A stretch of DNA of 64,000 nucleotides from Catellatospora methionotrophica (GTDB taxonomy: Bacteria; Actinomycetota; Actinomycetes; Mycobacteriales; Micromonosporaceae): positions 1,240,001 to 1,304,000 of the forward strand of contig NZ_JAAOTJ010000001.1 in NCBI RefSeq assembly GCF_011297335.1. Direction: 5' to 3'. Shown here one piece after another: positions 11,460 to 28,170 of this stretch. Both the position numbers and the translations under genes were made by a program. The notes below the pieces were generated by a model. The model searched no databases, was not told where the DNA came from, and was given only the letters and a program-made list of their open reading frames with translations. Position 1 is the first letter of the stretch, and the number at the start of each line of letters is the position of its first letter.

Positions 11460-11851
11460 GACGGTTCTCCGAGGTCGAGGGGGTAGTCGAGGACGCCGGT
11501 GGCCAGGGTCTGCCTGACCCGGTAGCGCAGGTGCACGTTGAGCCGCGTGGCGACGTCGGGGTCCGGGTCGGCGTCGACCTGCTCGACCTCGACGCGCGGC
11601 TCCCAGCGTTCGAGCGCGTGGCGTACGTAGTGGATGGCCAGGCCCGCGGTCGTCTGGTCGTTGGGCGCGAACAGCAGCCGGTGCAGGTGCGAGCCGTAGT
11701 CGGGGCGCATCAGGCGCTCGCCGGGCACCGTGCCGAGCAGCAGCATGATGGCCTGGCGGATGGCGTCGTCGCCGTGCACGAACGCGACCCGCCCGGCGGC
11801 GGAGGTGACGATCCCCTCGCCCTCGTCGAAACGCAGTGAGGTAGCGGTCAT
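11456..11851 (-). CDS. gp25/GPW-like baseplate wedge protein (Cis9)
   Basis: 131 residues with the gp25-lysozyme-like fold family pattern: REAL start MTATSLRFDEGEG, then DAIRQAIMLLLGTVPGERLMRPDYGSHLHRLLFAPND, AGLAIHYVRHALERWEPRVEV and a short beta tail. The motif PGERLMRPDYG is diagnostic. gp25 links the J-type wedge to the sheath in T4, T6SS and extracellular injection systems. Both ends overlap neighbours by 4 nt (ATGA), indicating strict translational coupling. Confidence 0.92.
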   Translation of the reverse strand: MTATSLRFDEGEGIVTSAAGRVAFVHGDDAIRQAIMLLLGTVPGERLMRPDYGSHLHRLLFAPNDQTTAGLAIHYVRHALERWEPRVEVEQVDADPDPDVATRLNVHLRYRVRQTLATGVLDYPLDLGEPS

Positions 11852-12186: not shown

Positions 12187-13664
12187 GGGATCACCTCGGT
12201 GGGCAGCCCCGGGACCAGCGAGCGCTCGAAGTCGACGTTGGCCGCCCGGATGGTCATCCGGTGCCCGGGGGCCTCGATGACCAGGTCGGTGCGGGCCAGC
12301 AGGCGGACCTTGCCCGGCGCTAGTTCCAGGGTGCTGCCGTCGGCGTTGGCCAGTTTGATCGACTTGTCGGTGTCGTCGACGATCACCTGCTGGCCACCGG
12401 GGCTGTGCAGGCTCCACCGGCGTACCCGGCCGCCGCTGACGCCGCTGTCGGGCGGCGACTGCGCGCCGAAGACCGCGCCGAGCACGATCGCCTCGGCCGG
12501 ATCCTCGTGCGGCAGCGCGAGCACGACCAGGTCGTCGGGGTCGGGCAGGGCGACGATGCCCTTGCCGGGCCCCGCGCCGGGGCACAGCACCGGAAGCCAG
12601 CCGAGGTCCAGGTCGCCGTGGCCGGGCAGGACCACCCGCACCCGGCCGCGCCCGTCGGGGTCGTCGACCTCGGTGACCCGGCCCAGCGCGACCGCGGCGG
12701 CCCCGGACAGAGCCGGGCCCTCGGGCGCCTCGGTGCCGAACGCGGTGCGGTAGCCGGTGGCGTCGATCGTGTGCACGGCCGTACACACCGGATACGTGCC
12801 GTCGACGGCGTCGTCGACACCCGCGATCTCGACCGCGCGGCCGGGCCGCAGCGCCGGGTCGCCCTGGGCGGTGCCGCTGACACACAGCACCCGCGCCGCC
12901 GCCCGGTCCAGTGCTGCCTGCGCCGCCTCGGCCTGGTGGCCGGCGGGCTGGTCGATCAGCGCCCGGTCACCGTCCCCGGCCAGTCCGGGCAGGAAGTCCG
13001 CAGGCCCCGGCCGGTACGCGGGCGCGGCGACCCGGCCCGTCGTGAACTCCCCACCGGGGTGCCACCCGAAGGTCGCCACCCCGCCGACGGCCCGGTCCGC
13101 GTGACCCTCGATCCGGCACTGCCACAGCGTGTCGCCGAACTTCAGCGCCACCGCGGCACCGCGCGGACGCAGCGCCTCCAGGGTCAGCGTCCGCCCCTCC
13201 AACACCGGGTACCGGCCGAGCCGGGCGGCGGTGCGGGCGAGCAGGTCCCAGTCGGTCGCCCGGTGTTGCAGCACCCGCTCCAGCGGCGGCCCCGGATCGG
13301 GGCAGCGGACCGTCAGGCCCAGCCCGGCGGTGAGTTCGCGGGCCAGGTCGGCGAGGGTGACGCCGGTGAACACGCGCGGGCGCTGCCGGGCCCGCAGGCG
13401 GTGCAGCAGGTCGTGGGCGACGACGGTCCAGCCGGTCTCCGAACCCGGCCCCCGGACCAGTTCGACCGTGGCGACCTCGCCCTCGAACAGTTCCTCGCCG
13501 TCGACCTCCAGGCTCAGCCGCCCGCCGAAGGGCCAGCCGGCGGCCGTGTCCACGGTCAGCTCCGCCTGCGCTGGCAGGCCGATGCGCTGCGTCACCCGCA
13601 CGGACAGGACCCGGCCGGGCACGGTCACGCCGTCCAGGCGCACTGACACGACAGGAATGATCAT
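12183..13664 (-). CDS. VgrG-like spike protein (phage late control D / gp5 fusion, Cis8)
   Basis: 493 residues from ATG 13664 (overlapping the LysM gene stop). Residues 1-330 resemble the gp27/late-control-D hub (VSVRLDGVTVPGRVLSVRVTQ ... VLQHRATDWDLLARTAARLGRYPV ... LWQCRIEGHADRAVGGVATFGW). Around 365-430 is a gp5-type OB fold (GRVTEVDDPDGRGRVRVVLPG, then WLPVLCPGAGPGKGIVALPDPDDLVVLALPHEDPAEAIVLG). The C-terminus carries short beta-helix-like repeats (QQVIVDDTDKSIKLANADGSTLEL ... RTDLVIEAPG) as in VgrG needles. It forms the trimeric central spike that sits under the tube. No extra effector domain is fused. Confidence 0.9.
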   Translation of the reverse strand: MIIPVVSVRLDGVTVPGRVLSVRVTQRIGLPAQAELTVDTAAGWPFGGRLSLEVDGEELFEGEVATVELVRGPGSETGWTVVAHDLLHRLRARQRPRVFTGVTLADLARELTAGLGLTVRCPDPGPPLERVLQHRATDWDLLARTAARLGRYPVLEGRTLTLEALRPRGAAVALKFGDTLWQCRIEGHADRAVGGVATFGWHPGGEFTTGRVAAPAYRPGPADFLPGLAGDGDRALIDQPAGHQAEAAQAALDRAAARVLCVSGTAQGDPALRPGRAVEIAGVDDAVDGTYPVCTAVHTIDATGYRTAFGTEAPEGPALSGAAAVALGRVTEVDDPDGRGRVRVVLPGHGDLDLGWLPVLCPGAGPGKGIVALPDPDDLVVLALPHEDPAEAIVLGAVFGAQSPPDSGVSGGRVRRWSLHSPGGQQVIVDDTDKSIKLANADGSTLELAPGKVRLLARTDLVIEAPGHRMTIRAANVDFERSLVPGLPTEVIP

Positions 13665-14299
13665 GACGGAACTCCGAGGACAGACCCGGCGCGTACGGCC
13701 AGGGGGTTGTCGATGCCGTTGTGCTCGGCCAGTTCCCGCCACCGGGTCGGGTCGCCCAGCGCCTCGGCGGCGAGCAGGTCGAACCGCGCCCCGCCACCGT
13801 CCGAGCCGTCCCCGGTCGCCTCCACGGCGCTCGCGGCGGTACGGGCCGGTGGCGCGGCGGGCTCGCCCTCGCTGCGGACCAGCTTGAGCCGCAGCCAGGA
13901 CCGGCGCGGCATACCGGAGGCGTCGATGGCGTCCAGGCGCTCGGCCACGTTCACCACCACGCCCGGCAGGTTCCACGTCTTGCCCCAGACCAGGCGTACC
14001 AGCGGCGGGCGGCCCTGCCCGTTCTCGGCCAGGTGCCACAACCGCCCGGTGAGCCGCCGCACGTCGTCGGGCCGGTGCGCGGGCTCGACCAGGTCCACAT
14101 CGAACAGCAGGTCCAGGACCAGCTCGGTGCGCCCGCCGCCGGTGAACAGCAGCGCGTCGTCGACCCCGGTGCCGACCACCGCGCCGGGCAGCGCCGCAGG
14201 GCGCACCCCGGCCAGCCGCCGTACCACCAGGGTCTCGGGGTTGACCAGGCAGTCGATGCGCTCGCCGGTGGCGTCGACGAGAAAGGCTATGCGTTCCAC
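13661..14299 (-). CDS. LysM-containing tube/spike adaptor (CIS tube protein, Cis7)
   Basis: 212 residues from GTG 14299, chosen because AGGAGGG lies just upstream and the N-terminal pattern VERIAFLVDATGERIDCLVNPETL is the usual start of this family. Middle strands contain FTGGGRTELVLDLLFDVDLVEP; the C-terminus (about 165-212) is a LysM-like repeat (ALGDPTRWRELAEHNGIDNPLAVRAGSVLGVP). In injection systems this protein bridges the inner tube and the VgrG hub. Neighbours on both sides overlap it. Confidence 0.88.
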   Translation of the reverse strand: MERIAFLVDATGERIDCLVNPETLVVRRLAGVRPAALPGAVVGTGVDDALLFTGGGRTELVLDLLFDVDLVEPAHRPDDVRRLTGRLWHLAENGQGRPPLVRLVWGKTWNLPGVVVNVAERLDAIDASGMPRRSWLRLKLVRSEGEPAAPPARTAASAVEATGDGSDGGGARFDLLAAEALGDPTRWRELAEHNGIDNPLAVRAGSVLGVPS

Positions 14300-15708
14300 G
14301 GCCTGCCCTCCTGTTGGCTCTGCCGCAGTCGCCTGCGGTCGGGATCGGTGCGCTCGGGTGCGGCGACGGCCCACAACTCAACGTCGTCGAGCAGTTCGGG
14401 CCAGGGCCCGGGCTCCGGCTCCACGCCCTGCCCGGCAAGCCGCGGCCACGGCGCAGAAGCAGAAACCGCAGGTGGCGTATCAGCAGCCGGCGGCATGCCC
14501 GACGCCCCGGATGCCGACCCGGATGCCGACGCGAACGGCCCCCGCCAGTCGGACCCAGCAGCCACCTCCTCGCCGGACCTGCTCACCGCATGTAGCGATG
14601 GCTGGCGGGCCTCCACAGGACGCCGCCGGGCCGGAGAGGTGGACGGCGTCAGTGCCGCCTCGGGCTGGACCGGCGACGTGACCGGCGATGCCGCCACGGA
14701 CAGAGGCGATGCGATGTCCGTGGCCGGTGATGTCATCGCAGGCTGGGCCGATGTCGCCACCGCAGGTGAGGCGTCTGATCGGATCGGCGAGGCAACCGGG
14801 CGCATCGGCTCCGTCCAGGTCGGATCCGCCCGCACAGCGAAGCGCGGGAGGTCGTCCCGGCTGCGCGACGGCGTCTTGACCTGCTCCGCCTGCCCGGCAC
14901 GGCCGAAGTTCTCGACCCGGTCGGCCCGGTCAGGCTGGTCGGCCCGGTCAAGCTGGTCGGCCCGGTCGGCCTGGTCGGGCTGGTCGGCCTGGTCGGGCTG
15001 GTCGGCCTGGTCGGGCTGGTCGGCCTGGTCGGGCTGGTCGGGCTGGTCGGGCGTCGAGGGTTCCGCTACGTCGGAGCTGCGGTCGGTGGTTTCGGCGCCG
15101 TCGGACTCACCGGCGGCGACGAACCGGATCGCCGTCCCGGAGGTATCACCCAGTGCGGGCCACACCTTCTCTGATGTGGACTCATCGGAGAAGATGTGCT
15201 CCGACGGCGATGATGTGGTCCCGGCAGGCCCTGTCTCCGCGCGGGCAGGCCCCGTCCCCACGCCAGCAGGCTCCGCCCGGCGCGGTTCGGAGGTCCCCAC
15301 AGCCCGCGAGCCCGGCACCAGTGCCTGACGCTGCGGCTGCGGCTGCGGCTGCGGCTGCGGCTGGGCGATCATCACCGGGCTGGCCTGCGGCTCGGCCGCC
15401 GCACGGGCGGCCGAGCGCTCGCCGTCCAGCCACCGGGTGGGGCCGGACCAGGCTACCGGCGCATCGGGCATCGCCGAGCCGGGGTCGGCCGGGATGGCCG
15501 CGACGGCGACGAAGCCGTCGGCCGGGAGCGGATACAGCGGGGTGGCCGGGCGCAGGAGCAGGGTGGGCGGGGCGTCCGGTGCGGGCGTGCGCCCGCCGAG
15601 CCGGACGGCCCCGTCCCCGGGAGCGGGCATCCTCGGCTGGGGAGCGGCGCCCCTCAGGCCGAGGAGGCGCCGCAACCAGCCGAGCATGTCACGCAGCCGC
15701 GCCGACAT
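14287..15708 (-). CDS. Long disordered repeat protein in the CIS operon
   Basis: 473 residues with almost no predicted fold: a short amphipathic N-terminus (MSARLRDMLGWLRRLLGLRG), PQ dipeptide repeats around 115-126, a central acidic tandem repeat built on DQPDQAD (about 215-265), then Ser/Ala/Pro-rich sequence with several TSP motifs and a slightly more ordered acidic end (WPELLDDVELWAVAAPE). Codon use is typical of the window and the gene overlaps its neighbours on both sides, so it is a real member of the operon. It is the only candidate for a tape-measure or tube-lumen protein, but it lacks the long helical pattern of Cis14. Alternatives: a lumen scaffold, an effector carrier, or a linker to the membrane components. 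Confidence 0.7.
   Translation of the reverse strand: MSARLRDMLGWLRRLLGLRGAAPQPRMPAPGDGAVRLGGRTPAPDAPPTLLLRPATPLYPLPADGFVAVAAIPADPGSAMPDAPVAWSGPTRWLDGERSAARAAAEPQASPVMIAQPQPQPQPQPQRQALVPGSRAVGTSEPRRAEPAGVGTGPARAETGPAGTTSSPSEHIFSDESTSEKVWPALGDTSGTAIRFVAAGESDGAETTDRSSDVAEPSTPDQPDQPDQADQPDQADQPDQADQPDQADRADQLDRADQPDRADRVENFGRAGQAEQVKTPSRSRDDLPRFAVRADPTWTEPMRPVASPIRSDASPAVATSAQPAMTSPATDIASPLSVAASPVTSPVQPEAALTPSTSPARRRPVEARQPSLHAVSRSGEEVAAGSDWRGPFASASGSASGASGMPPAADTPPAVSASAPWPRLAGQGVEPEPGPWPELLDDVELWAVAAPERTDPDRRRLRQSQQEGRPWNA
14922..15056. repeat. Tandem repeat encoding DQPDQAD units
   Basis: A GGTCGG/GGTCGGGCT-type unit of about 9 or 18 bp, reading CTGGTCGGGCTGGTCGGC on the plus strand, is repeated with small variations through this stretch. 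It encodes the acidic Asp-Gln-Pro/Ala-Asp series of the disordered CIS protein. Such near-identical DNA repeats are prone to copy-number change. Confidence 0.85.
15328..15361. repeat. GGCTGC hexanucleotide repeat encoding Pro-Gln
   Basis: About five consecutive GGCTGC-type units (CTGCGG phase) encode the PQPQPQPQPQ run of the disordered CIS protein on the minus strand. Confidence 0.85.
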
Positions 15709-16183
15709 TGCTGGTCTCCCGCTGGATGCCGTCGTGTGCCAGCACCAGCGTCTCCACCGCCAGTTCGCGGCTCATCGCGTCCAGCGGCGAGCCGTACCAC
15801 TCCTGCGGCCAGGCGTTGACCAGGTTCCAGCGCAGCGCCTCGGCCGAGCCCGAGCTGTCGAGCATGACGATCGAGACGTTGCGGCGGCTGACCCGGCCCT
15901 CGACGGCGGTCATCAGCCACTCCCACAGTTCGAGGGACGAGGTGAGACCGAACCGCAGGGTCACCGGGGCGTACGTGACCCGGCCGGGGATGGCGCGCAC
16001 CACCGAGTTGTTGCCGGCCTCGCGGTACGAGATGGTCTCGACCTTGATGCCCAGCCCGCCGACCTCGGTGAAGTGGCCCTCGGTGACGTTGTTGATGAGC
16101 AGCTTGAAGTTGTACGCGCGGTACGGGTCCACCAGGTTGCCCGGCTGGGCGGCGGGGGCGGGGGTCGCGGTCACCTCGGGCAT
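15689..16183 (-). CDS. Contractile tail tube protein (T4 gp19 family, Cis1)
   Basis: 164 residues from ATG 16183, which starts 1 nt before the stop of the sheath gene. After a Pro/Ala-rich N-terminus come the tube-fold signatures DPYRAYNFKLLINNVTEGHFTEVGGLGIKVETISYREAGNN, RVTYAPVTLRFGLTSSLELWEWL, and the end ELAVETLVLAHDGIQR. This is the gp19-like family that stacks hexamers to form the inner tube. Only one tube gene exists in the operon, whereas many extracellular systems have two or three. Confidence 0.93.
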   Translation of the reverse strand: MPEVTATPAPAAQPGNLVDPYRAYNFKLLINNVTEGHFTEVGGLGIKVETISYREAGNNSVVRAIPGRVTYAPVTLRFGLTSSLELWEWLMTAVEGRVSRRNVSIVMLDSSGSAEALRWNLVNAWPQEWYGSPLDAMSRELAVETLVLAHDGIQRETSNVGAAA

Positions 16184-16184
16184 G

Positions 16185-17399
16185 TCAGGCTCCTGCCTGG
16201 TCGCCGCCGGCACCGGCGGACTGGCTGATCTTGAAGATGACGAACTCGGCGGGCTTGACCGGCGCGATGCCGATCATGGTCACGACCTGGCCGGCGTCGC
16301 GGACGTCGGCGGGGTTGGTCTCCTCGTCGCACTTGACGAAGAAGGCCTCCTGCGGCGAGCGGCCCTGCAGCGCGCCGTCGCGCCACACGCGGGTGAGGAA
16401 CGCGCTGACGTCGCGGCGGATCGACTTCCACAGCAGGGTGTCGTTGGGCTCGAACACGATCCAGCGGGTGCCGTCGCCGATGGACTCCTTGAGCATGTTG
16501 AACAGCCGCCGGACGTTCAGGTAGCGCCACTCGCTGCCGGAGGCGGCCAGGGTGCGGGCGCCCCAGATGCGGATGCCCTCGGCCGGGAAGTGCCGGATGC
16601 AGTTGACCCCGGCCGGGTTGAGCACGTCCTGCTCGACCTTCGTGACGCGGTACGACAGGTCGACCGCGCCGCGCACCGGCTCGTTGGCCGGGGCCTTGTG
16701 CACCCCGCGCAGGGTGTCGGTGCGGGCCCACACCCCGGCGACGTGGCCGCTGGGCGGGGTGTTGACGACATCGCCGGTCAGCGGGTCGCGGACGACCAGC
16801 CACGGCACGTAGAAGGTGCCGTAGTCGGACTGGCGCGGGCGCAGCCCGCTGTTGTCCTCGGCCGCCGGGGCGTCGCCGTCGACGGGCTTCTTCGTCGCGG
16901 GCTTGGGCGTGGTCACGCCGCCGACGCGGGTCAGCCGCTCGACGTCGCCGGTGTGCTCCGGCCCGTCGAGGATGGCCATCCGGTCGCCCATCAGCTCGCA
17001 GTGCGCGAGCAGGTCCTCGTACGACAGCGCGTCGGTGTAGCCGGGCGCGGCCACGATGGCGACCTCGTCGATCGCCTCCAGCAGGCGCAGCCCGCTGCGC
17101 TGGCGGCCCTTGCCCGCGACCGGGTCACCGGGGGCGATGTTGACGACGTAGCAGCGCCCGCCGCCGTTGTCGAAGAAGCCGTAGACGGCCCGCGACAGCG
17201 GGGTGCTGTCGTTGCTCTCGCCGACGAAGATCCGGACGAACTCCGACCAGCTGTTGACGGCGACCGCCTCGTTGCGGCGCGCGGTGTTGTCCGGTGCGGT
17301 GCCGACGAAGCCGGCGGTGCTGGTGCCGACCGACTCGATCGGCCTGCTGCCGCCGGACACCTCCTCGACGTAGATGCCGGGAGAGGAGTACACAGGCAT
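16185..17399 (-). CDS. Contractile tail sheath protein (Cis2)
   Basis: 404 residues starting at ATG 17399. The N-terminus MPVYSSPGIYVEEVSGGSRPI is the classic sheath start, followed by STSTAGFVGTAP-like sequence, an insertion-rich variable region with a Thr/Lys/Pro linker (TTPKPATKKPVDG, about 175-190), and the conserved core INCIRHFPAEGIRIWGARTLA, EWRYLNVRRLFNMLKESI and the C-terminal EFVIFKISQ. The last strands interlock neighbouring subunits. Only one sheath gene is present. ATG to upstream stop distance is 3 nt. Confidence 0.95.
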   Translation of the reverse strand: MPVYSSPGIYVEEVSGGSRPIESVGTSTAGFVGTAPDNTARRNEAVAVNSWSEFVRIFVGESNDSTPLSRAVYGFFDNGGGRCYVVNIAPGDPVAGKGRQRSGLRLLEAIDEVAIVAAPGYTDALSYEDLLAHCELMGDRMAILDGPEHTGDVERLTRVGGVTTPKPATKKPVDGDAPAAEDNSGLRPRQSDYGTFYVPWLVVRDPLTGDVVNTPPSGHVAGVWARTDTLRGVHKAPANEPVRGAVDLSYRVTKVEQDVLNPAGVNCIRHFPAEGIRIWGARTLAASGSEWRYLNVRRLFNMLKESIGDGTRWIVFEPNDTLLWKSIRRDVSAFLTRVWRDGALQGRSPQEAFFVKCDEETNPADVRDAGQVVTMIGIAPVKPAEFVIFKISQSAGAGGDQAGA

Positions 17400-17401
17400 T
17401 G

Positions 17402-18094
17402 CTAGACCTCCTGGATTTCGCAGGTGATGACGACAGGTTCGGCCGTGACGGCCGCGACCTCGGCGGTGAGCAGCAGCCCGCGACCGGAGACCAGCAGGCG
17501 CTGGGGCCGGTCGGCGACGACGGGCAGCTCGAAACGGCCCCGGATGTCGGTGTACGCGGCGGCGGTGCCGTCCTCGGCCGAGATCCGCATGCCGACCAGG
17601 GCCACCCCGCCGGGGGTCTGCACCCGTCCGGCGAGCCGCCGCAGCGCCACGGTGTCCAGCCGGGGCGGCTGGGTGACCCGTGGAACCCTGGGCGCGACCG
17701 TGGCGACCTGCACCGCGACCTCGCACAGCAGCGCGATCCGCAGCCGTGCGCCCAGCGCCGTCCACAACGTGTCCGGCACCGGCTCGGCCAGCAGGTACGG
17801 CACCCCGCCGGTGAGGATCCGGTCGAGTGCCTCGATGGCCGTGCTGTCGGGGCCGTCGGCGTGCAGCAGGAACCTGACCCGCAGCCGCAGCGGGTCACCG
17901 GGTCGTGCGGGCAGCGTCTCCGGCAGCACCGCGTACGGCCAGGCGGCCACCCACGGTCCGCCGAAGGCACCGGACTGCACGCCGACCGACGCGGCCGGAT
18001 GCTCGATCCGCACCGCGACGTCGACCTCGGCCAGGCTGGCCAGCAGCAGCGCGGACGCCCTGGCCAGGGGCCCGTGGTCCTCGTGGTGGCGCAT
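17402..18094 (-). CDS. DUF4255 tail-cap protein (Cis16-like), first gene of the CIS operon
   Basis: 230 residues from ATG 18094 with GGAGG at -10. The N-terminal half matches the DUF4255/Pvc16 pattern (DVAVRIEHPAASVG, RPGDPLRLRVRFLLHADG, IEALDRILTGGVPYLLAEPVPDTLW). The second half adds a beta-sandwich of carboxypeptidase-regulatory type (LAGRVQTPGGVALVGMRISAEDGTAAAYTDIRGRFELPVV). Cis16 proteins cap or terminate the tail distal to the baseplate. The fused sandwich is an extra. As the first cistron it fixes the operon start; a promoter must lie in 18095-18214. Confidence 0.85.
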   Translation of the reverse strand: MRHHEDHGPLARASALLLASLAEVDVAVRIEHPAASVGVQSGAFGGPWVAAWPYAVLPETLPARPGDPLRLRVRFLLHADGPDSTAIEALDRILTGGVPYLLAEPVPDTLWTALGARLRIALLCEVAVQVATVAPRVPRVTQPPRLDTVALRRLAGRVQTPGGVALVGMRISAEDGTAAAYTDIRGRFELPVVADRPQRLLVSGRGLLLTAEVAAVTAEPVVITCEIQEV

Positions 18095-18214
18095 AGCGAC
18101 CTCCGCCTCGTCTCGTGCCGGGGCGGCACGATCGCAGGACAGAGCGCTCAGTCACGGGCGGTGATACACCTACTGCTGTCAGCTCCGTGACGCGGAAGTC
18201 GCTGATTTCCGACG
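18095..18214 (-). promoter_or_regulatory. Leader/promoter region of the CIS operon
   Basis: This 120-bp gap between the CHAT gene stop and the first CIS gene is the only sizeable non-coding space upstream of the whole operon. On the minus strand it contains GTAGGTGTATCACC, whose TATCAC could serve as a -10, and a widely spaced pair GTCACGG/CCGTGAC (18151-18157, 18185-18191). No confident -35 was found, so a non-housekeeping sigma factor is possible. Confidence 0.35.
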
Positions 18215-20767
18215 TCAGGCGGCCCCGGAGCCGAAGCAGCTGAAGCTGTACGCGGTCGCCCAGCGCTCCACCGGGGCGGCGGCCTGCGCGGCGGCCAGCG
18301 CGGCAGCGGGGTCCTGACCGGCGCGCAGCCGCTGGTGAAGGCCGAGCATCAGCTCGCGGGTCGCCTCGTCGTCGACGGGCCCGGTGCTGGCGACCAGGGT
18401 CCGCGCGCCCGCGCCGAGCAGGGCCGCGGTCAGGCCCATCAGCTCGTCGCCGGGATGCACGGCGGACAGGCCGGTGTCGCATGCGGACAGTACGACCAGG
18501 TCCGGGGCGCGGCGCAGGGTCGTCAGGTCGTGTACGGTCAGCGGCCCGTCGGCGAGGTCGAGGTGCGAGAACAGTGGATTGTCGGCGCGGAACTCACCGT
18601 GCGCGGCCAGGTGCACCCGCCGCGCCCCGTCGATCGCGGCGAGCGTGGCGGCGACCGTCGCCCGTGGACCGATCAGCAACCGCGCGGACGGGGCCAGCTC
18701 GGCCAGCGCCCGCACCTCGCCGATCGCGTGGTCCGGCCGGGCGGCGGCGACCAGCACGAACCGCTCGTCCAGCTCGGTACGGCGGTTGACGGTGCCGCGC
18801 ACCCAGGCCGTCGCCGACGGCGCGACGGTGACCGGCCGCCCGCCACAGCTCGGCAGGGCCGCCCACGGCAGCGCCTGCAGCGCACCGGTCGGCACCACCA
18901 CGAGATCCCGGTCCCCGGTCAGCCCCGCGACGGGTTTGAGCAGCCAGTCGTCGAGCTGCCGCAGGCCGTGCCGGGCGGCGGCCTCGGCGGCGGCCAGCGA
19001 CGCGGGCGAGCCGTAGCGCAGCACGAGGCGCCGCATCGCGAACCGCAGCGCGGCGGTCTCCGGACCGAGCGCGGCCGCCTCGACCAGCGGGCACAGCCGC
19101 ACCTGCCCGCCCGCGACGACGACGGCCAGCAGCCGCCCGTCCTGCTCGACGAGTTCGACCAGCGCGCGGTCGCCGAGCCCGGCCGTGATCTCGTCCACCG
19201 AACCGGGGGTGTCCACCGGAGACGTTCCCGGTTCGGTGCGCCAGGTGCGGCGGCGGATCGCGTCCTCCAGCGCGCGCTGGCGCTGCAACGGCCGGGTGCG
19301 GCGGATCGCGTCCAGGGAGTCGCCGGCCAGTTCTGCGGTGACGCGGCGCAGCTGCGCGAGTTCGCGTACCAGGTCGGGGTCGTCGTGCGGGGTGCTCGGG
19401 GGCAGCCGCAACGTGGCCGCGCGCCACCGCTCGGCCCAGGCGAGGACCTGGCGCGCGGAGCGTTCCGACACGGCCAGCCGCACCCCGAGCGCGGCCAGGT
19501 CACCGCCCTCGGCGGAGCTGAGCACCCGCAGCTCGGTCGCGCCGAGCGCGGCCCGGTACTGGTCGAGCAGGCGCAGCCCGGCCCGCAGCGCCCGCCTGGC
19601 CCCGGCCAGGTCACCCTGGTGCAGGCGGCTCAGCGCCTGCGCGTGGCAGGCCCGGATGCGCAGCCGGGCGGTGCCCCGTCCGGGCCGGACGGCAGCCAGG
19701 TCGGCCAGCGCGGCGGGGTCGCCGCTCTCGGCCGCGTACAACCGCGCCTCCAGCGCCTGCTCGGGCCAGCCCGCCGCGTCCAGCGCGTCGGCCAGCGCCC
19801 GCAACCGGGCCGTACGCCGCCCCGGCGCGGCCCGCACCTGCAGATACTCGGCGTGCACCGCCCACCGGCCGCGCTCCTGCCGGGTGAACGCCCGCCGGGC
19901 CAGCCGCGCCGGTTCCCGCGCCCCGGCCACGTCCCCGGCGGCCAGCGCCGCCTGCGCCTGCAGCAGTCGGGCCTGCGGCAGCAGCGTGCCGAGCCGGGCC
20001 GCCGCGGCGGTCTCGACGGCCTCCTGCGCGGCCTGGTGCGCCTCGGGCAGCAGCCGCGCCGCCAGCAGCAGCTCCGCCCGGTCGATCAGGGCCTCGGCGG
20101 GCCGCGACCCGCTGCGCCGAAAGTGCTCGTCAGCCCGGTCGTACCAGGTCAGCGCCGTGACGATGTCGCCGCTCTGCGCCGCGACGAAGCCGAGGTTGTG
20201 CTGCGCCTGCGCCGCCGCCGACGGCAGTGCCAGCTCGCGGTACAGCTGCTCGGCCCGCCCGAGGTCGGCCCGCGCGGCGGCGAACGCGCCCCGGTAGGCC
20301 TGCAGCACTCCCCGGTTCGTCAGCGCCCTGGCCTGCCACAGCCGGTCGTCGTGCCGCCGGAACGCGGCCAGCGCCGACGTGTACGCGGCCAGCGCCTGGT
20401 CGACGCGCCCCAGCCGCCGCAGCAGGATGCCGTGCTGCATCCGCGCCCGCGCCAGCGGTAATCCGTCCAGCGCCGACAGCGCCCGCCCGATCTCGGCCAG
20501 CGCCGCGTTCGGGCGGCCGAGGTCGTTGAGCACCAGCGCCAGGCTCATCCGCGACAGTGCCGCCAGCTCCGGCAACCGGGCCCGGCCCGCGACCGCGACC
20601 GAACGCCGCAGACGGGACGCGGCCAGCGCCGGGTCCTGGAGTTCGCGGGCGGCCAGGCCGAGGATGCGCAGGGACACCGCCGCACCGGCGGGATCGCGTT
20701 CGCGTTCGGCGCGGGCCAGCAGCCGTTCGCCGAGCACACCGGCCCGGCGCGGATCGGCCATCACCAT
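18215..20767 (-). CDS. TPR-CHAT caspase-like protein
   Basis: 850 residues. The first ~480 are helical TPR-like repeats (for example LALVLNDLGRPNAALAEIGRAL, AQHNLGFVAAQSGDIVTALTWYDRADE). The C-terminal ~350 residues form a CHAT domain (caspase HetF-associated with TPRs), with VHLAAHGEF placing the catalytic His at 723 and VVLSACDTGL placing the Cys at 763, followed by GLTAALLGAGARTLVAS and the final YSFSCFGSG. Both catalytic residues are intact. CHAT proteases act in prokaryotic cell-death and conflict systems, for example craspase in type III-E CRISPR. It is divergent from a subtilase gene and lies upstream of the CIS operon on the same strand. Substrate unknown; a role in suicide or activation of the neighbouring system is inference. 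Starts at 20767 or 20761 are both possible. Confidence 0.88.
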   Translation of the reverse strand: MVMADPRRAGVLGERLLARAERERDPAGAAVSLRILGLAARELQDPALAASRLRRSVAVAGRARLPELAALSRMSLALVLNDLGRPNAALAEIGRALSALDGLPLARARMQHGILLRRLGRVDQALAAYTSALAAFRRHDDRLWQARALTNRGVLQAYRGAFAAARADLGRAEQLYRELALPSAAAQAQHNLGFVAAQSGDIVTALTWYDRADEHFRRSGSRPAEALIDRAELLLAARLLPEAHQAAQEAVETAAAARLGTLLPQARLLQAQAALAAGDVAGAREPARLARRAFTRQERGRWAVHAEYLQVRAAPGRRTARLRALADALDAAGWPEQALEARLYAAESGDPAALADLAAVRPGRGTARLRIRACHAQALSRLHQGDLAGARRALRAGLRLLDQYRAALGATELRVLSSAEGGDLAALGVRLAVSERSARQVLAWAERWRAATLRLPPSTPHDDPDLVRELAQLRRVTAELAGDSLDAIRRTRPLQRQRALEDAIRRRTWRTEPGTSPVDTPGSVDEITAGLGDRALVELVEQDGRLLAVVVAGGQVRLCPLVEAAALGPETAALRFAMRRLVLRYGSPASLAAAEAAARHGLRQLDDWLLKPVAGLTGDRDLVVVPTGALQALPWAALPSCGGRPVTVAPSATAWVRGTVNRRTELDERFVLVAAARPDHAIGEVRALAELAPSARLLIGPRATVAATLAAIDGARRVHLAAHGEFRADNPLFSHLDLADGPLTVHDLTTLRRAPDLVVLSACDTGLSAVHPGDELMGLTAALLGAGARTLVASTGPVDDEATRELMLGLHQRLRAGQDPAAALAAAQAAAPVERWATAYSFSCFGSGAA

Positions 20768-20914
20768 GGCTAGTACGCGCTCATGCTGGCCGACTCTTCC
20801 ACAACCGTCCCATCACGACGCAAGGTCGTGTCGCCGTTACGACACATCCCGATGTATCAGCAGGCCTCGCCCCGCACTCTGTTGCAGGACGCAACACGAA
20901 ACGGAGGAACGACG
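20768..20914. promoter_or_regulatory. Divergent regulatory region, CHAT vs subtilase-sigma operon
   Basis: 147 bp separate the divergent starts. It contains GTGTCG-N6-CGACAC (perfect 6-bp arms, about 20828-20845), GTTGC-N5-GCAAC (20881-20895), and ACGGAGGA as the subtilase ribosome site at 20901-20908. The dyads could be operators or an extracytoplasmic-function-type promoter; not decidable by eye. Confidence 0.4.
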
Positions 20915-22096
20915 ATGGCTATGCCGCAGGATCGTCTGCACCGCTGGCAGGACCGCCGTGCCCGGCGGATGGCCGGGCTGCCCTGGCTCGGCCAGGAGAC
21001 CCGGGCCGACCGCAAACCTGTCTGGTACACCCGCAACGAGCTGCTGGTCCTGTCCGACCACCGCGCCTCCGCGGAACGTGTCCTCGGCACCCTCGGGCAC
21101 AAGGGCGTCGCCGAGAGCGAACTCGTCCCCGGCCTGGTCCGGCTGAGCGCCGACGGCCTGGACGTGCCGGCCGCCGCCCGCCGCGTACGCGAGGCCGCCG
21201 CCCGCGACGGCGACACCCGCACCGTCGTCAGCCCCAACCACGTCTTCGTGTCCACCACCCCGTTCGAGCACGGCGGCCCGTTCGGCCCGCCGGTGCCCGC
21301 GCCCAAGCCCGGCGAGCGCCCCGGTCCCGCCCGGCCCGGCCGCGCCGTGAGCGTCGCCGTCATCGACACCGGCGTATGGCGCAACAGCCCGCTGCCCGCG
21401 CACGCCTACACGGCGGCGCCGACCGACTACGAGGTCGACACCGACGTCGACGACGACGGTGTCATCGACGGCGACGTCGGGCACGCGAACTTCATCATCG
21501 GCGTCATCGGCGCGCGCACCGGCAAGGCCGACGTACGGGCCCTGCGGGTGCTCGACACGTTCGGCCTGTGCACCGAAGCCGACCTGATCACCTCGTTCGC
21601 CCGGCTCAGGGACGAGAAGCTGATCAACCTGTCGCTGGGCGGCTACACCCTCGACGACCAGCCGCCGCTGGCCCTGGCCACCGCCCTGTCGGCGCTGCTG
21701 ACCGGCCGCGACCGGCTCGTGGTCGCCGCGGCGGGCAACGACGGGCTGCGCGACCGGCCGTTCTGGCCCGCCGCGTTCGCGGGCACCGACGTGCCGTGGG
21801 CCGGGCAGGTCGTCGCGGTGGCCGCCCACGACGGCAGCGAGCTGTGCGACTGGAGCAACGCGGGCCCGTGGGTCAGCGTGACCGCCCCCGGCGCGGACAT
21901 CACCAGCACGTTCGTCAAACACGACCAGTTCCCGTCCGGCTGGGCGCTGTGGAGCGGCACCTCGTTCGCCACCCCGCACGTGGTCGCGCTGCTCGCCGAG
22001 CAGACGGCCCGCTCCGGCTCGACCGAGGTCGCCCTCAAGTCCGTGCTCAACACGGCCGCGGCCCGCTCCTTCGGCGGATACCCGGGGCTGTCGTGA
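20915..22096 (+). CDS. Cytosolic S8 subtilisin-like serine protease
   Basis: 393 residues from ATG 20915, chosen because GGAGGA lies 7 nt upstream; a longer in-frame start at 20783 has none. There is no signal peptide. Residues 1-110 resemble an inhibitor/propeptide-like region, and a Gly/Pro linker (120-142) leads to the catalytic domain: Asp151 in SVAVIDTGV, His190 in DVGHANFIIGVI (the usual HGT is HAN here), oxyanion Asn275 in AAAGND, Ser350 in SGTSFATPH. All triad residues are present. A cytosolic subtilase beside a CHAT protease and sigma factor suggests a regulatory or death protease rather than a digestive one (inference). Its stop overlaps the next gene's GTG. Confidence 0.88.
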   Translation: MAMPQDRLHRWQDRRARRMAGLPWLGQETRADRKPVWYTRNELLVLSDHRASAERVLGTLGHKGVAESELVPGLVRLSADGLDVPAAARRVREAAARDGDTRTVVSPNHVFVSTTPFEHGGPFGPPVPAPKPGERPGPARPGRAVSVAVIDTGVWRNSPLPAHAYTAAPTDYEVDTDVDDDGVIDGDVGHANFIIGVIGARTGKADVRALRVLDTFGLCTEADLITSFARLRDEKLINLSLGGYTLDDQPPLALATALSALLTGRDRLVVAAAGNDGLRDRPFWPAAFAGTDVPWAGQVVAVAAHDGSELCDWSNAGPWVSVTAPGADITSTFVKHDQFPSGWALWSGTSFATPHVVALLAEQTARSGSTEVALKSVLNTAAARSFGGYPGLS

Positions 22097-22662
22097 CCCA
22101 GACGCCCCCGCACACGCTGCCCGACGCCGACACCGCCGCGCTGCTGCGCCAGGCCGGCGACGGCGACCAGCGCGCCTGGAACACCATCGTGGACCGCTAC
22201 TCCGGGCTGGTCTGGTCGGTGGCCCGCAGCCACCGCCTCGGCCAGGCCGACGCCGCCGACGTCTTCCAGGCCACCTGGCTGCGCCTGGTCGAACACCTCG
22301 GCGCGATCCGCGAACCCGAACGCCTCGGCTCCTGGCTGGCCACCACCGCCCGCCGGGAGTCCCTGGCAGTGCTGCGCCGCGCCGGTCGCGACCTGCCCGT
22401 CGGCGACCTGCTCACCCTCGAACCCCGCGACCGCCCCACCGCCGAGGTCGACAGCGACCTGCTGCGCCGCGAACGCGACGGCGCGCTGTGGCAGGAGTTC
22501 GCGCGGCTGCCCGGCCAGTGCCAGTCGGTGCTGCGGCTGCTGATGATGGACCCCGCCCCCAGCTATGCCGAGGTCAGCGCGGCATTGGACATCCCCATCG
22601 GCAGCATCGGCCCGACCCGTGCGCGCTGCCTCGACCAGCTCCGCCGGAGGTTGAACCCCTGA
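22093..22662 (+). CDS. Sigma-70 family (ECF-like) RNA polymerase sigma factor
   Basis: 189 residues from GTG 22093, overlapping the subtilase stop (GTGA). Region 2 is AAALLRQAGDGDQRAWNTIVDRYSGLVWSVAR ... DAADVFQATWLRLVEHL ... RLGSWLATTARRESLAVLRR; region 4 is the C-terminal helix-turn-helix (LPGQCQSVLRLLMMDPAPSYAEVSAALDIPIGSIGPTRARCLDQL). It is a two-domain alternative sigma factor. The coupled expression with the subtilase suggests it either controls this module or the neighbouring CIS operon. No classical anti-sigma gene with a ZAS motif is adjacent; the next gene is a soluble 145-aa protein. Confidence 0.9.
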   Translation: MTQTPPHTLPDADTAALLRQAGDGDQRAWNTIVDRYSGLVWSVARSHRLGQADAADVFQATWLRLVEHLGAIREPERLGSWLATTARRESLAVLRRAGRDLPVGDLLTLEPRDRPTAEVDSDLLRRERDGALWQEFARLPGQCQSVLRLLMMDPAPSYAEVSAALDIPIGSIGPTRARCLDQLRRRLNP

Positions 22663-23099
22663 TGCCGTACGACGATGACATGCCCGCCGACTTGCGCGGG
22701 CTGACCACCCGGATGGACCCGGTGCCCTTACACCTGGTCGCGCTGGCCAAGGAGAGCCTGGCCTGGCGGGACACCGACGCGGCGCTGGCGAGGTTGGTGG
22801 CCCAGGTCGACCTCGCCGGCGTCCGCGGCGAGGACCTGCCCGACCTGTTCACGTTCACCGCCGGTGAGCTCACCATCGAGGTCGAGATCGCGGTGGCCGG
22901 GCAGACCGCCGCGCTGACCGGCCAGCTCGTGCCGCCGCAGCCCGCCCGCATCCGCGTCGACCACGCCGACGGGCCCACCTGGGTCGAGGCCGACGGCCTG
23001 GGCCGGTTCTCGGCGGCCGGGATCGCCCGCGGCCACCTGCGCCTGCACTGCCACCCACCGCAGGGCGGCCCGGTCCAGACCTCCTGGACCCTCGTCTGA
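22662..23099 (+). CDS. 145-aa partner protein of the sigma/subtilase/CHAT module
   Basis: Starts at ATG 22662 in a TGATG overlap with the sigma gene, with GGAGG at 22646-22650. It begins MPYDDDMPADLRGLTTRMDPVPLHLVALAKESLAWRDTDAALA, an acidic helical part, followed by a beta-sandwich-like part (FTAGELTIEVEIAVAGQTAALTGQLVPPQPARIRVDH ... GHLRLHCHPPQGG). The second half resembles carboxypeptidase-regulatory-like sandwiches. No membrane helix or ZAS zinc motif is visible. It could be the anti-sigma or modulator of the upstream sigma factor by position only; not recognised as a known family. Confidence 0.7.
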   Translation: MPYDDDMPADLRGLTTRMDPVPLHLVALAKESLAWRDTDAALARLVAQVDLAGVRGEDLPDLFTFTAGELTIEVEIAVAGQTAALTGQLVPPQPARIRVDHADGPTWVEADGLGRFSAAGIARGHLRLHCHPPQGGPVQTSWTLV

Positions 23100-27024: not shown

Positions 27025-28170
27025 TTACTCGTTCAGCCCGGTCTTCGGCTGGTCCACGGCCACCCACAGGTCGGTGCTGCCGTCGTCGGCCGGGCTCTCG
27101 ATCACGTGCGTGCCGAATCCGGACCGGGCCAGCGCCCCGAACCGCGCGAACATGTCGGCGAAGCCCGTCATCGCCCGGCGGGCGCCGAGCCAGTGGTTCT
27201 CCCCGTACGCGTGGTACGCGTCGCCGTAGGTGACCCCGTCGGTCAGGGCCAGCAGACCCTGGCCGCGCCCGGCGCGCACCTTCATCACGGCCGCGAAGCT
27301 GACCAGCATCAGGCCGAACACGTTGCCGGCCCAGGTCAGGTTGAACTCGTCGACACCCGGAACCCGGTTGCGGCCGCCGGCGGCGGCGGTGAAGCTCACC
27401 GTCTTGTTCTTCTTGTGGTACGACTGCACCCAGCCCGTGTTGCCGTCCAGCGGATGGTTGGGCGTGGTGCTGGCCAGCCCGCCCCGGTGGATGTGCGTCG
27501 GGGTCTCCAGGATGAACGGGCGGCTGAAGTCGATGTTCGCAGCGCCCAGGCTCAGCAGCCCGAGCGGCGCGCTGTTCGCCGCGATCAGCTTCTCCCGGTG
27601 CGCGATCAGCAGCCGCTCGCCCTCCAGCTCGGCGAGGATGTCGGCGCCGCTGAACGGGTCCTCCAGCGACGGCACCCCGTAGTACGGCAGGTGCGGCACG
27701 GTCCCGCCGGACGGGCAGAACATCGACAGCATCCCCCAGAACGGCGACCACGAGGTGGTGTCCTCGAACTCCTTCTGGAACTCCTCGGGCACCGGCTGCG
27801 GGTAGGTGTGGTTCAGGTAGGCGTGCTCCTTGCCGAGCCGGTTCTTGCGCCGCAGCGCCCAGGTGAATCCGACGAAGTACGGGCTGCGCGGGCGGTAGGA
27901 GCCGTCCTTGGCATTGGACTGCGCCTCGCACGCCTCGGCCAGCTTCGCCATGCCCACCCCGCCCTTGTCGCACATGGCGATCGGCGCGAGCTCGGGCTTG
28001 GCCAGGTCGAAGTCGGCCCCGGTGGTCTCCTTGGCGAGCTTGGTGAACTCGGCCTCGGCGAGGTCGTGCACCGCCACGCCGACGAGCAGGTTGAGCCGCT
28101 CGAGGTTGACCCGGAACGTCATCAGCGCGCGCTGCTTGAGAAGCTCGAACTTGCTCGGGTCTGGTTGCAT
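27025..28170 (-). CDS. Uncharacterised 381-aa cytosolic protein
   Basis: Starts at ATG 28170 with GAGGAACC upstream (MQPDPSKFELLKQRALMTFRVNLERLNLLVGVAVHDLAEAEF). No signal peptide or membrane helix. The N-terminal ~60 residues are helical; the middle is rich in aromatic and Gly/Pro motifs (PRSPYFVGFTWALRRKNRLGKEHAYLNHTYP, TSWSPFWGMLSMFCPSGGTVPHLPYYGVP) and the C-terminus has TDGVTYGDAYHAYGENHWLGARRAM. It looks like a dedicated globular protein, perhaps an encapsulated or cargo-type protein, but I do not recognise the family. Codon use is normal for the window. It stands alone. Confidence 0.7.
   Translation of the reverse strand: MQPDPSKFELLKQRALMTFRVNLERLNLLVGVAVHDLAEAEFTKLAKETTGADFDLAKPELAPIAMCDKGGVGMAKLAEACEAQSNAKDGSYRPRSPYFVGFTWALRRKNRLGKEHAYLNHTYPQPVPEEFQKEFEDTTSWSPFWGMLSMFCPSGGTVPHLPYYGVPSLEDPFSGADILAELEGERLLIAHREKLIAANSAPLGLLSLGAANIDFSRPFILETPTHIHRGGLASTTPNHPLDGNTGWVQSYHKKNKTVSFTAAAGGRNRVPGVDEFNLTWAGNVFGLMLVSFAAVMKVRAGRGQGLLALTDGVTYGDAYHAYGENHWLGARRAMTGFADMFARFGALARSGFGTHVIESPADDGSTDLWVAVDQPKTGLNE

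What the first reader, a model, noticed from the sequence alone, without database searches (positions are those of the whole stretch)
18215..23099. CHAT protease, cytosolic subtilase and sigma factor module beside the injection system
Two potential proteases (TPR-CHAT with intact His723/Cys763 and subtilase with intact Asp/His/Ser triad, no signal peptide), a sigma factor and a 145-aa partner sit directly against the CIS operon, separated from it by ~120 bp. CHAT and subtilase proteases occur in bacterial cell-death systems. A sigma factor overlapping the subtilase gene could switch on the CIS operon and protease together. This is the best candidate for a novel programmed cell-death or conflict system in the window.
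Basis: partly seen in the sequence, partly recalled or inferred. Interest (0 to 1): 0.78.

Follow-up and report, generated by a model that had tools for sequence, protein, structure and literature searches.

The report
Sigma-protease switch controlling an injection machine
A widespread actinobacterial set of four genes (a sigma factor, a small partner protein and two proteases) has, in one group of soil bacteria, been wired to a phage-tail-like injection machine, because the machine's genes and several likely cargo genes carry the same rare promoter as the sigma factor's own operon.

Summary
[quoted passage not shown] Two things change the picture. First, the quartet is not special to the CIS: it is an old actinobacterial module (partner profile in 44 of 396 phylum genomes; 48 fetched module-related loci have no CIS nearby). 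Second, the CIS link is nevertheless functional by comparative evidence. One promoter, GTATCA-N17-CTCT with a GTC-N8-GAC element upstream, precedes both the subtilase-sigma-partner operon and the CIS operon. An exact search of 101 genomes gave 15 hits, all in the 7 genomes with the CIS-linked module: 7 CIS promoters, 6 module promoters, 2 before effector-like genes. The GTATCA/CTC core also precedes module genes in 12 of 20 distant loci (14 regions against 0.055 in shuffles), so it is probably this sigma's own promoter. Further sites precede deaminase-like, papain-like and unknown genes, including window 27025-28170. Best model: the TPR-CHAT protease frees the sigma from its partner (Craspase-like, inferred), switching on module, CIS and cargo. 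Cell death is untested.

The parts
18215..20767 (-). TPR-CHAT cysteine protease (850 aa; His723, Cys763)
   Evidence: PF12770 E 6.9e-42, TPR_12; His/Cys invariant in 14 homologues; nearest solved CHAT domains are Csx29 chains
20915..22096 (+). cytosolic subtilase (393 aa; D151, H190, S350)
   Evidence: PF00082 E 3e-21; triad invariant in 16 homologues; no hydrophobic N-terminus
22093..22662 (+). ECF sigma factor (189 aa)
   Evidence: PF04542 45.2 bits, TIGR02937 69.8 bits, both over cut-off; conserved across Actinomycetota beside the partner
22662..23099 (+). partner protein (145 aa): N-terminal helices plus Ig-like beta-sandwich; proposed anti-sigma/protease substrate
   Evidence: no known family; AF2 pLDDT 82: helices 7-16 and 23-48, strands 61-131; homologues in 56 of 101 family genomes
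20830..20883 (+). promoter of the subtilase-sigma-partner operon: GTC-N8-GAC-N10-GTATCA-N17-CTCTGT
   Evidence: exact motif, conserved in 6 of 7 CIS-linked genomes
18138..18191 (-). the same promoter upstream of the CIS operon
   Evidence: exact motif in all 7 CIS-linked genomes of the 101-genome scan
17402..18094 (-). first gene of the CIS operon (230 aa, CarboxypepD_reg-like C-terminus)
   Evidence: weak PF13620; syntenic in all CIS-linked loci
16185..17399 (-). CIS sheath
   Evidence: PF17482, PF04984 over cut-off
15689..16213 (-). CIS inner tube (gp19-like)
   Evidence: PF06841 E 5.6e-38
13661..14374 (-). CIS_tube family protein
   Evidence: PF19266 38.3 bits, over cut-off
11456..11851 (-). 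baseplate wedge gp25
   Evidence: PF04965
8925..11459 (-). baseplate J-like protein
   Evidence: PF04865
8474..8935 (-). tail protein I
   Evidence: PF09684
7362..8477 (-). PASTA-domain CIS-operon protein
   Evidence: PF03793; syntenic in L039 and L112-L122
28221..28271 (-). sigma-type promoter (2 mismatches to the motif) of a candidate CIS cargo gene
   Evidence: the same promoter precedes the orthologues in C. vulcania and C. coxensis
27025..28170 (-). 381-aa protein of unknown family; candidate CIS cargo/effector
   Evidence: promoter above; of 101 genomes searched only the window genome and C. vulcania have a clear copy, plus C. coxensis; all three carry the CIS-linked module

Best explanation
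The four genes are one regulatory module: an ECF sigma factor, its translationally coupled 145-aa partner, a subtilase and a divergently transcribed TPR-CHAT protease. In the ancestor of the Catellatospora/Rhizocola/Allorhizocola group the sigma factor's promoter was placed in front of a contractile-injection-system operon and several cargo-like genes. The active sigma therefore transcribes its own operon, the CIS and the cargo together. Proposed switch: the partner holds the sigma inactive; the TPR-CHAT protease, which has no such promoter of its own and so may stand ready as the sensor, cleaves the partner when it detects a stimulus; the freed sigma amplifies its own operon and builds the loaded CIS; the cytosolic subtilase finishes degradation of the partner or processes cargo. 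Shown by computation: gene identities, intact catalytic residues, conservation, the shared promoter and its near-exclusive genome-wide placement. Inferred: that this sigma reads that promoter (strong), that the partner is an anti-sigma and CHAT substrate (moderate), the roles of the subtilase and cargo (weak).
For: Promoter GTC-N8-GAC-N10-GTATCA-N17-CTCT is at the subtilase and CIS operons with identical spacing. Exact search of 101 genomes: 15 hits, all in the 7 genomes with the CIS-linked module; 7 CIS, 6 module, 2 effector-like genes; reversed-pattern controls 0. In the wider phylum GTATCA-N15..17-CTC lies upstream of module genes in 14 regions in 12 of 20 loci against 0.055 in shuffles and 0 reversed, and in Salinispora and Dactylosporangium, so the core belongs to this sigma family. 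Seven of 7 tubes with at least 90% identity sit beside the module; 9 sister CIS (53-62%) have none. Two Catellatospora genomes without the module also lack the tube and the motif. CIS-linked CHATs form one clade, 100/99. Promoters are conserved before cargo-like orthologues: the 381-aa gene in 3 species, the 271-aa gene in 2, deaminase-like genes in 2 genera. The sigma was found next to the partner in 19 of 20 distant loci. TPR-CHAT/ECF-sigma/small-protein sets act this way in Craspase, where Csx29 cleaves Csx30, which inhibits CASP-sigma (PMC10028731).
Against: No expression or biochemical data. The partner has no detectable relation to Csx30 or to any known anti-sigma fold; its ordered domain is a common Ig-like sandwich. 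The GTC-N8-GAC element is confined to the CIS clade and may be another regulator's site. The module promoter of Allorhizocola has diverged. No motif precedes CHAT itself. Several cargo-like genes have no assignable domain, so 'cargo' rests on promoter and rarity only.
Confidence: 0.7

Rival explanations
1. Sigma-CIS regulon without a CHAT-driven switch: the sigma drives its operon and the CIS, but the partner is a sigma co-factor and the two proteases are simply regulon outputs, for example effectors or CIS-maturation proteases.
For: The promoter evidence shows only transcriptional coupling. The partner fold gives no anti-sigma signature. Some Dactylosporangium loci carry a subtilase-CHAT pair and a separate subtilase-sigma-partner set, so protease and sigma genes can be parted.
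Against: Sigma, partner, CHAT and subtilase mostly stay together across the phylum; CHAT, unlike an output gene, has no sigma promoter in the window.
Confidence: 0.35
2. Dedicated programmed-cell-death or anti-phage system: CHAT and subtilase are death proteases that fire together with the CIS to kill the own hypha, as CIS do under stress in Streptomyces coelicolor.
For: CIS-dependent cell death is known in Streptomyces (PMC10066040, PMC10020575). CHAT and subtilase domains give weak hits to defence models BovA and subtilase.
Against: The module is widespread without CIS across the phylum. Defence-model scores are weak (24 and 32 bits). No toxicity evidence.
Confidence: 0.22
3. Coincidence: the module merely happens to lie beside the CIS and travels with it by inheritance.
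For: One origin of the link; many modules without CIS; sister CIS without the module.
Against: The promoter motif at the CIS operon is conserved in spacing and core in all 7 genomes of the scan and is otherwise almost absent from the genomes; unlinked genes on other contigs carry it too.
Confidence: 0.06

Closest known systems
Type III-E CRISPR Craspase output arm: Csx29 (TPR-CHAT) - Csx30 - CASP-sigma
   Same: TPR-CHAT protease with His/Cys dyad, ECF sigma factor and a small non-enzymatic protein in one locus; sigma motifs within its own locus; CHAT domain of the window is nearest in sequence to Csx29 among solved CHAT chains
   Different: partner unrelated in sequence to any solved chain; an additional subtilase; the output is a CIS operon; Cas7-11 was not looked for; the trigger is unknown
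Cytoplasmic CIS of Streptomyces (CISSc/SLP)
   Same: actinobacterial contractile system with sheath, tube, gp25 and baseplate J; likely dedicated effectors
   Different: Streptomyces CIS control is tied to BldA and a cluster-encoded regulator (PMC10020575), not to an ECF sigma with CHAT and subtilase
EACC/caspase/TRADD-N conflict systems with ECF sigma neighbours (PMC8195603)
   Same: caspase-clan peptidase next to an ECF sigma factor in multicellular bacteria, with proposed proteolytic activation and a transcriptional output
   Different: no TRADD-N or EACC2 domain was identified here; different gene set (TPR-CHAT, subtilase, beta-sandwich partner)

Membership tests
CHAT-domain peptidase | PF12770 over cut-off and His/Cys dyad | tested here: met
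   144.3 bits against cut-off 24; H723 and C763 invariant
Peptidase S8 | PF00082 over cut-off and Asp/His/Ser triad | tested here: met
   76.4 bits against 21.8; D151, H190, S350 invariant
ECF sigma factor | sigma2 and sigma4 regions only, over curated cut-offs | tested here: met
   PF04542 45.2 bits; TIGR02937 69.8 bits over residues 28-187 of 189
ECF sigma factor | autoregulated promoter | tested here: inconclusive
   conserved motif before module genes across the phylum; no expression data
Craspase (type III-E CASP) | TPR-CHAT protease that is a Csx29 orthologue | tested here: not met
   TPR and CHAT are present, but the NCBIfam csx29 model scores 19.2 bits against a cut-off of 300: same architecture, not an orthologue
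Craspase (type III-E CASP) | Csx30 homologue | tested here: inconclusive
   partner profile finds no solved chain at E < 1; sequence and fold comparison only
Craspase (type III-E CASP) | Cas7-11 effector and CRISPR array | not tested
   no search was made for them
Contractile injection system | sheath, tube, gp25 and baseplate J genes | tested here: met
   PF17482, PF04984, PF06841, PF19266, PF04965, PF04865 over cut-off
Anti-sigma factor | binds and inhibits its sigma factor | not testable with these tools
   only coupling, co-conservation and an N-terminal helical region
Programmed-cell-death system | activation kills the host cell | not testable with these tools
   no computational test available

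The most novel reading that the evidence does not exclude
A CRISPR-free, Craspase-like protease switch: a TPR-CHAT protease, with a subtilase, cleaves a new kind of soluble anti-sigma factor; the freed ECF sigma simultaneously builds a contractile injection system and its cargo, scattered in the genome, from one rare promoter. The same switch drives still unknown outputs in many other actinobacteria.
Probability: 0.4. Interest if true: 0.82.

Novelty: new variant of a known kind. Interest (0 to 1): 0.66.

Why it matters
It gives a concrete, testable answer to how one family of actinobacterial injection systems is turned on. It also supplies a sequence signature that finds candidate cargo genes anywhere in the genome, including a deaminase-like and a papain-like family. 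And it suggests that TPR-CHAT protease/sigma switches, known from type III-E CRISPR, are a general bacterial signalling device whose actinobacterial members have not been described in the papers that could be searched here.

Tried and rejected
First pattern with a miscounted spacer (N9) gave no genome hit; corrected to N8. An upstream ATG for the subtilase (437 aa) was rejected: the ATG at 20915 has the ribosome site and the conserved start. Coincidence of module and CIS was considered and rejected on promoter evidence. Sigma-70-type promoter and terminator scan: nothing. Partner fold search: only common Ig-like sandwiches; best Foldseek match CrdA E 0.014, VIA Z 9.7, rmsd 2.3 over 87 residues of the beta domain; no anti-sigma or Csx30 match appeared, which is no evidence of absence. 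AlphaFold of the 381-aa candidate cargo failed (pLDDT 30, three sequences). The relative of the deaminase-like family in a third genome (G718) has neither CIS nor motif within the fetched 19 kb, so the family is not CIS-specific. Literature searches for a CHAT/subtilase/sigma module and for the GTATCA motif found none; subscription journals and supplements are not covered, and the large ECF re-classification paper is not held. Plasmid records: CHAT hits only up to 44.5% identity.
Full report
WHAT IS THERE. The window belongs to an 8.39 Mb actinobacterial genome; its nearest named relatives for the CHAT gene are Catellatospora species, Micromonosporaceae. On the minus strand a TPR-CHAT protease gene (18215-20767) is followed after 120 bp by a contractile-injection-system operon that starts at 18094 and runs down to about 7362, with sheath, tube, a CIS_tube protein, gp25, baseplate J, tail protein I and a PASTA protein. 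Divergent from CHAT, across a 147-bp gap, lie subtilase (20915-22096), sigma factor (22093-22662) and a 145-aa partner (22662-23099), each overlapping the next by a few bases. The subtilase has no hydrophobic N-terminus.

THE MODULE IS OLD AND MOSTLY NOT LINKED TO CIS. The partner is the most diagnostic piece. It has homologues in 56 of 101 genomes of the same family, often several per genome, and its profile is found in 44 of 396 genomes drawn from the phylum. Twenty loci from the phylum-wide search were fetched; the sigma factor is recognised next to the partner in 19, and CHAT and subtilase homologues in most. None of 48 module-related loci outside the CIS-linked group carries CIS genes within the fetched stretch. 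So the quartet is a general actinobacterial module.

THE CIS LINK IS ONE CLADE. The same gene order with the CIS operon occurs in Catellatospora (7 of 11 genomes in the genus carry the promoter pair), Rhizocola hellebori, Allorhizocola rhizosphaerae and one further genus. In the CHAT tree these form a single clade with support 100/99. In the 101-genome sample all seven tubes with at least 90% identity are beside the module, and nine sister CIS with 53-62% identical tubes have no module. Two Catellatospora genomes that lack the module also lack this CIS and the promoter motif. Module and CIS thus appear to be gained or lost together.

A SHARED PROMOTER JOINS THEM. Aligning the CHAT-subtilase gap and the CHAT-CIS gap of seven genomes showed one conserved block in both: GTC-N8-GAC-N10-GTATCA-N17-CTCT. 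In the window it is at 20830-20880(+) and 18191-18141(-). An exact search of 101 whole genomes returned 15 matches, all in the seven CIS-linked genomes: seven at CIS operons, six at subtilase operons and two in front of other genes; the reversed control pattern gave none. In the window's own genome the only exact matches are the two promoters. The GTC..GAC part is confined to this clade, but GTATCA-N15..17-CTC is not: it lies before module genes in 12 of 20 distant loci, 14 regions in all, against a mean of 0.055 in dinucleotide shuffles and 0 for the reversed pattern, and between CHAT and subtilase in Salinispora and Dactylosporangium. The economical reading is that GTATCA and CTCT are the -35 and -10 of this sigma family, used first for autoregulation and later placed at the CIS operon.

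THE REGULON REACHES FURTHER. Sites with the same layout, each followed at short distance by a ribosome site and start codon, precede: a 381-aa gene at window 27025-28170 and its orthologues in C. vulcania and C. coxensis; a 271-aa gene on another contig of the window's genome and its orthologue in the C. vulcania genome; two genes from two genera that encode homologous proteins (40% identical) with a deaminase-like HGE...CAAC motif; a 303-aa protein with a papain-like QGPSCW start and a weak YopT-type peptidase hit, E 0.01; a 376-aa unknown protein; and a 218-aa Zn-ribbon-like protein in C. tritici. These differ between species and are rare, as expected of cargo or effector genes, but none has been shown to be loaded.

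MECHANISM. Shown by computation: the parts, their conservation and the shared promoter. Strong inference: the sigma transcribes its own operon and the CIS. Moderate inference: the partner restrains the sigma and is cleaved by the TPR-CHAT protease. The grounds are genetic coupling, co-conservation, absence of the sigma promoter in front of CHAT, and the precedent of Csx29, Csx30 and CASP-sigma (PMC10028731), whose CHAT domain is the closest solved CHAT sequence. The partner's modelled structure (pLDDT 82) is an N-terminal helical part and an Ig-like sandwich, with no informative fold match. Weak inference: the subtilase completes degradation of the partner or processes cargo. Cell death is possible, since CIS mediate it in Streptomyces (PMC10066040, PMC10020575), but nothing here tests it.

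VERDICT. Observation confirmed; interpretation half right. The sigma-CIS link is real by promoter evidence; the CIS-specific death system is not supported as such. I rate it a new variant of known kinds: CIS regulation on one side, TPR-CHAT/sigma switches on the other.

Noticed in passing
window 27025-28170 (-): 381-aa protein without any known domain; promoter of the same type as the CIS operon; found in the window genome, C. vulcania and C. coxensis. Candidate CIS cargo.
   Followed up: partly
L082:6528-7124, L083:5923-6543: Homologous ~200-aa proteins with an HGE...NCAAC deaminase-like motif behind sigma-type promoters in two genera; family found in only 4 of 355 family genomes.
   Followed up: partly
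L035:10491-11399 (-): 303-aa protein starting with a papain-like QGPSCW motif behind an exact copy of the promoter, next to the partner gene in C. bangladeshensis.
   Followed up: partly
L164:7595 (+), L122 about 7378 (+): An additional full copy of the promoter just 3' of the partner gene in three Catellatospora genomes, without a convincing reading frame behind it; small RNA or decayed gene.
   Followed up: partly
upstream part of the promoters, window 20830-20844 and 18177-18191: GTC-N8-GAC (often a perfect TGTCG-N6-CGACA dyad) is present only in the CIS-linked clade; it may be the site of a second regulator.
   Followed up: no
L114 and L119: C. tritici carries the CIS-linked module on two scaffolds with the same layout; a real duplication or an assembly artefact.
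   Followed up: no
Dactylosporangium loci L123-L125, L128, L130, L131 and L040, L041, L043, L044: The module is split: a CHAT-subtilase pair lies tens of kb from a second subtilase-sigma-partner set, and both often carry the GTATCA-N17-CTCT promoter.
   Followed up: partly
L104 (G040:C1:342500-362400): A second, sister CIS in Rhizocola hellebori lies directly behind large biosynthetic genes that look lanthipeptide-like by eye; not annotated with a library.
   Followed up: no
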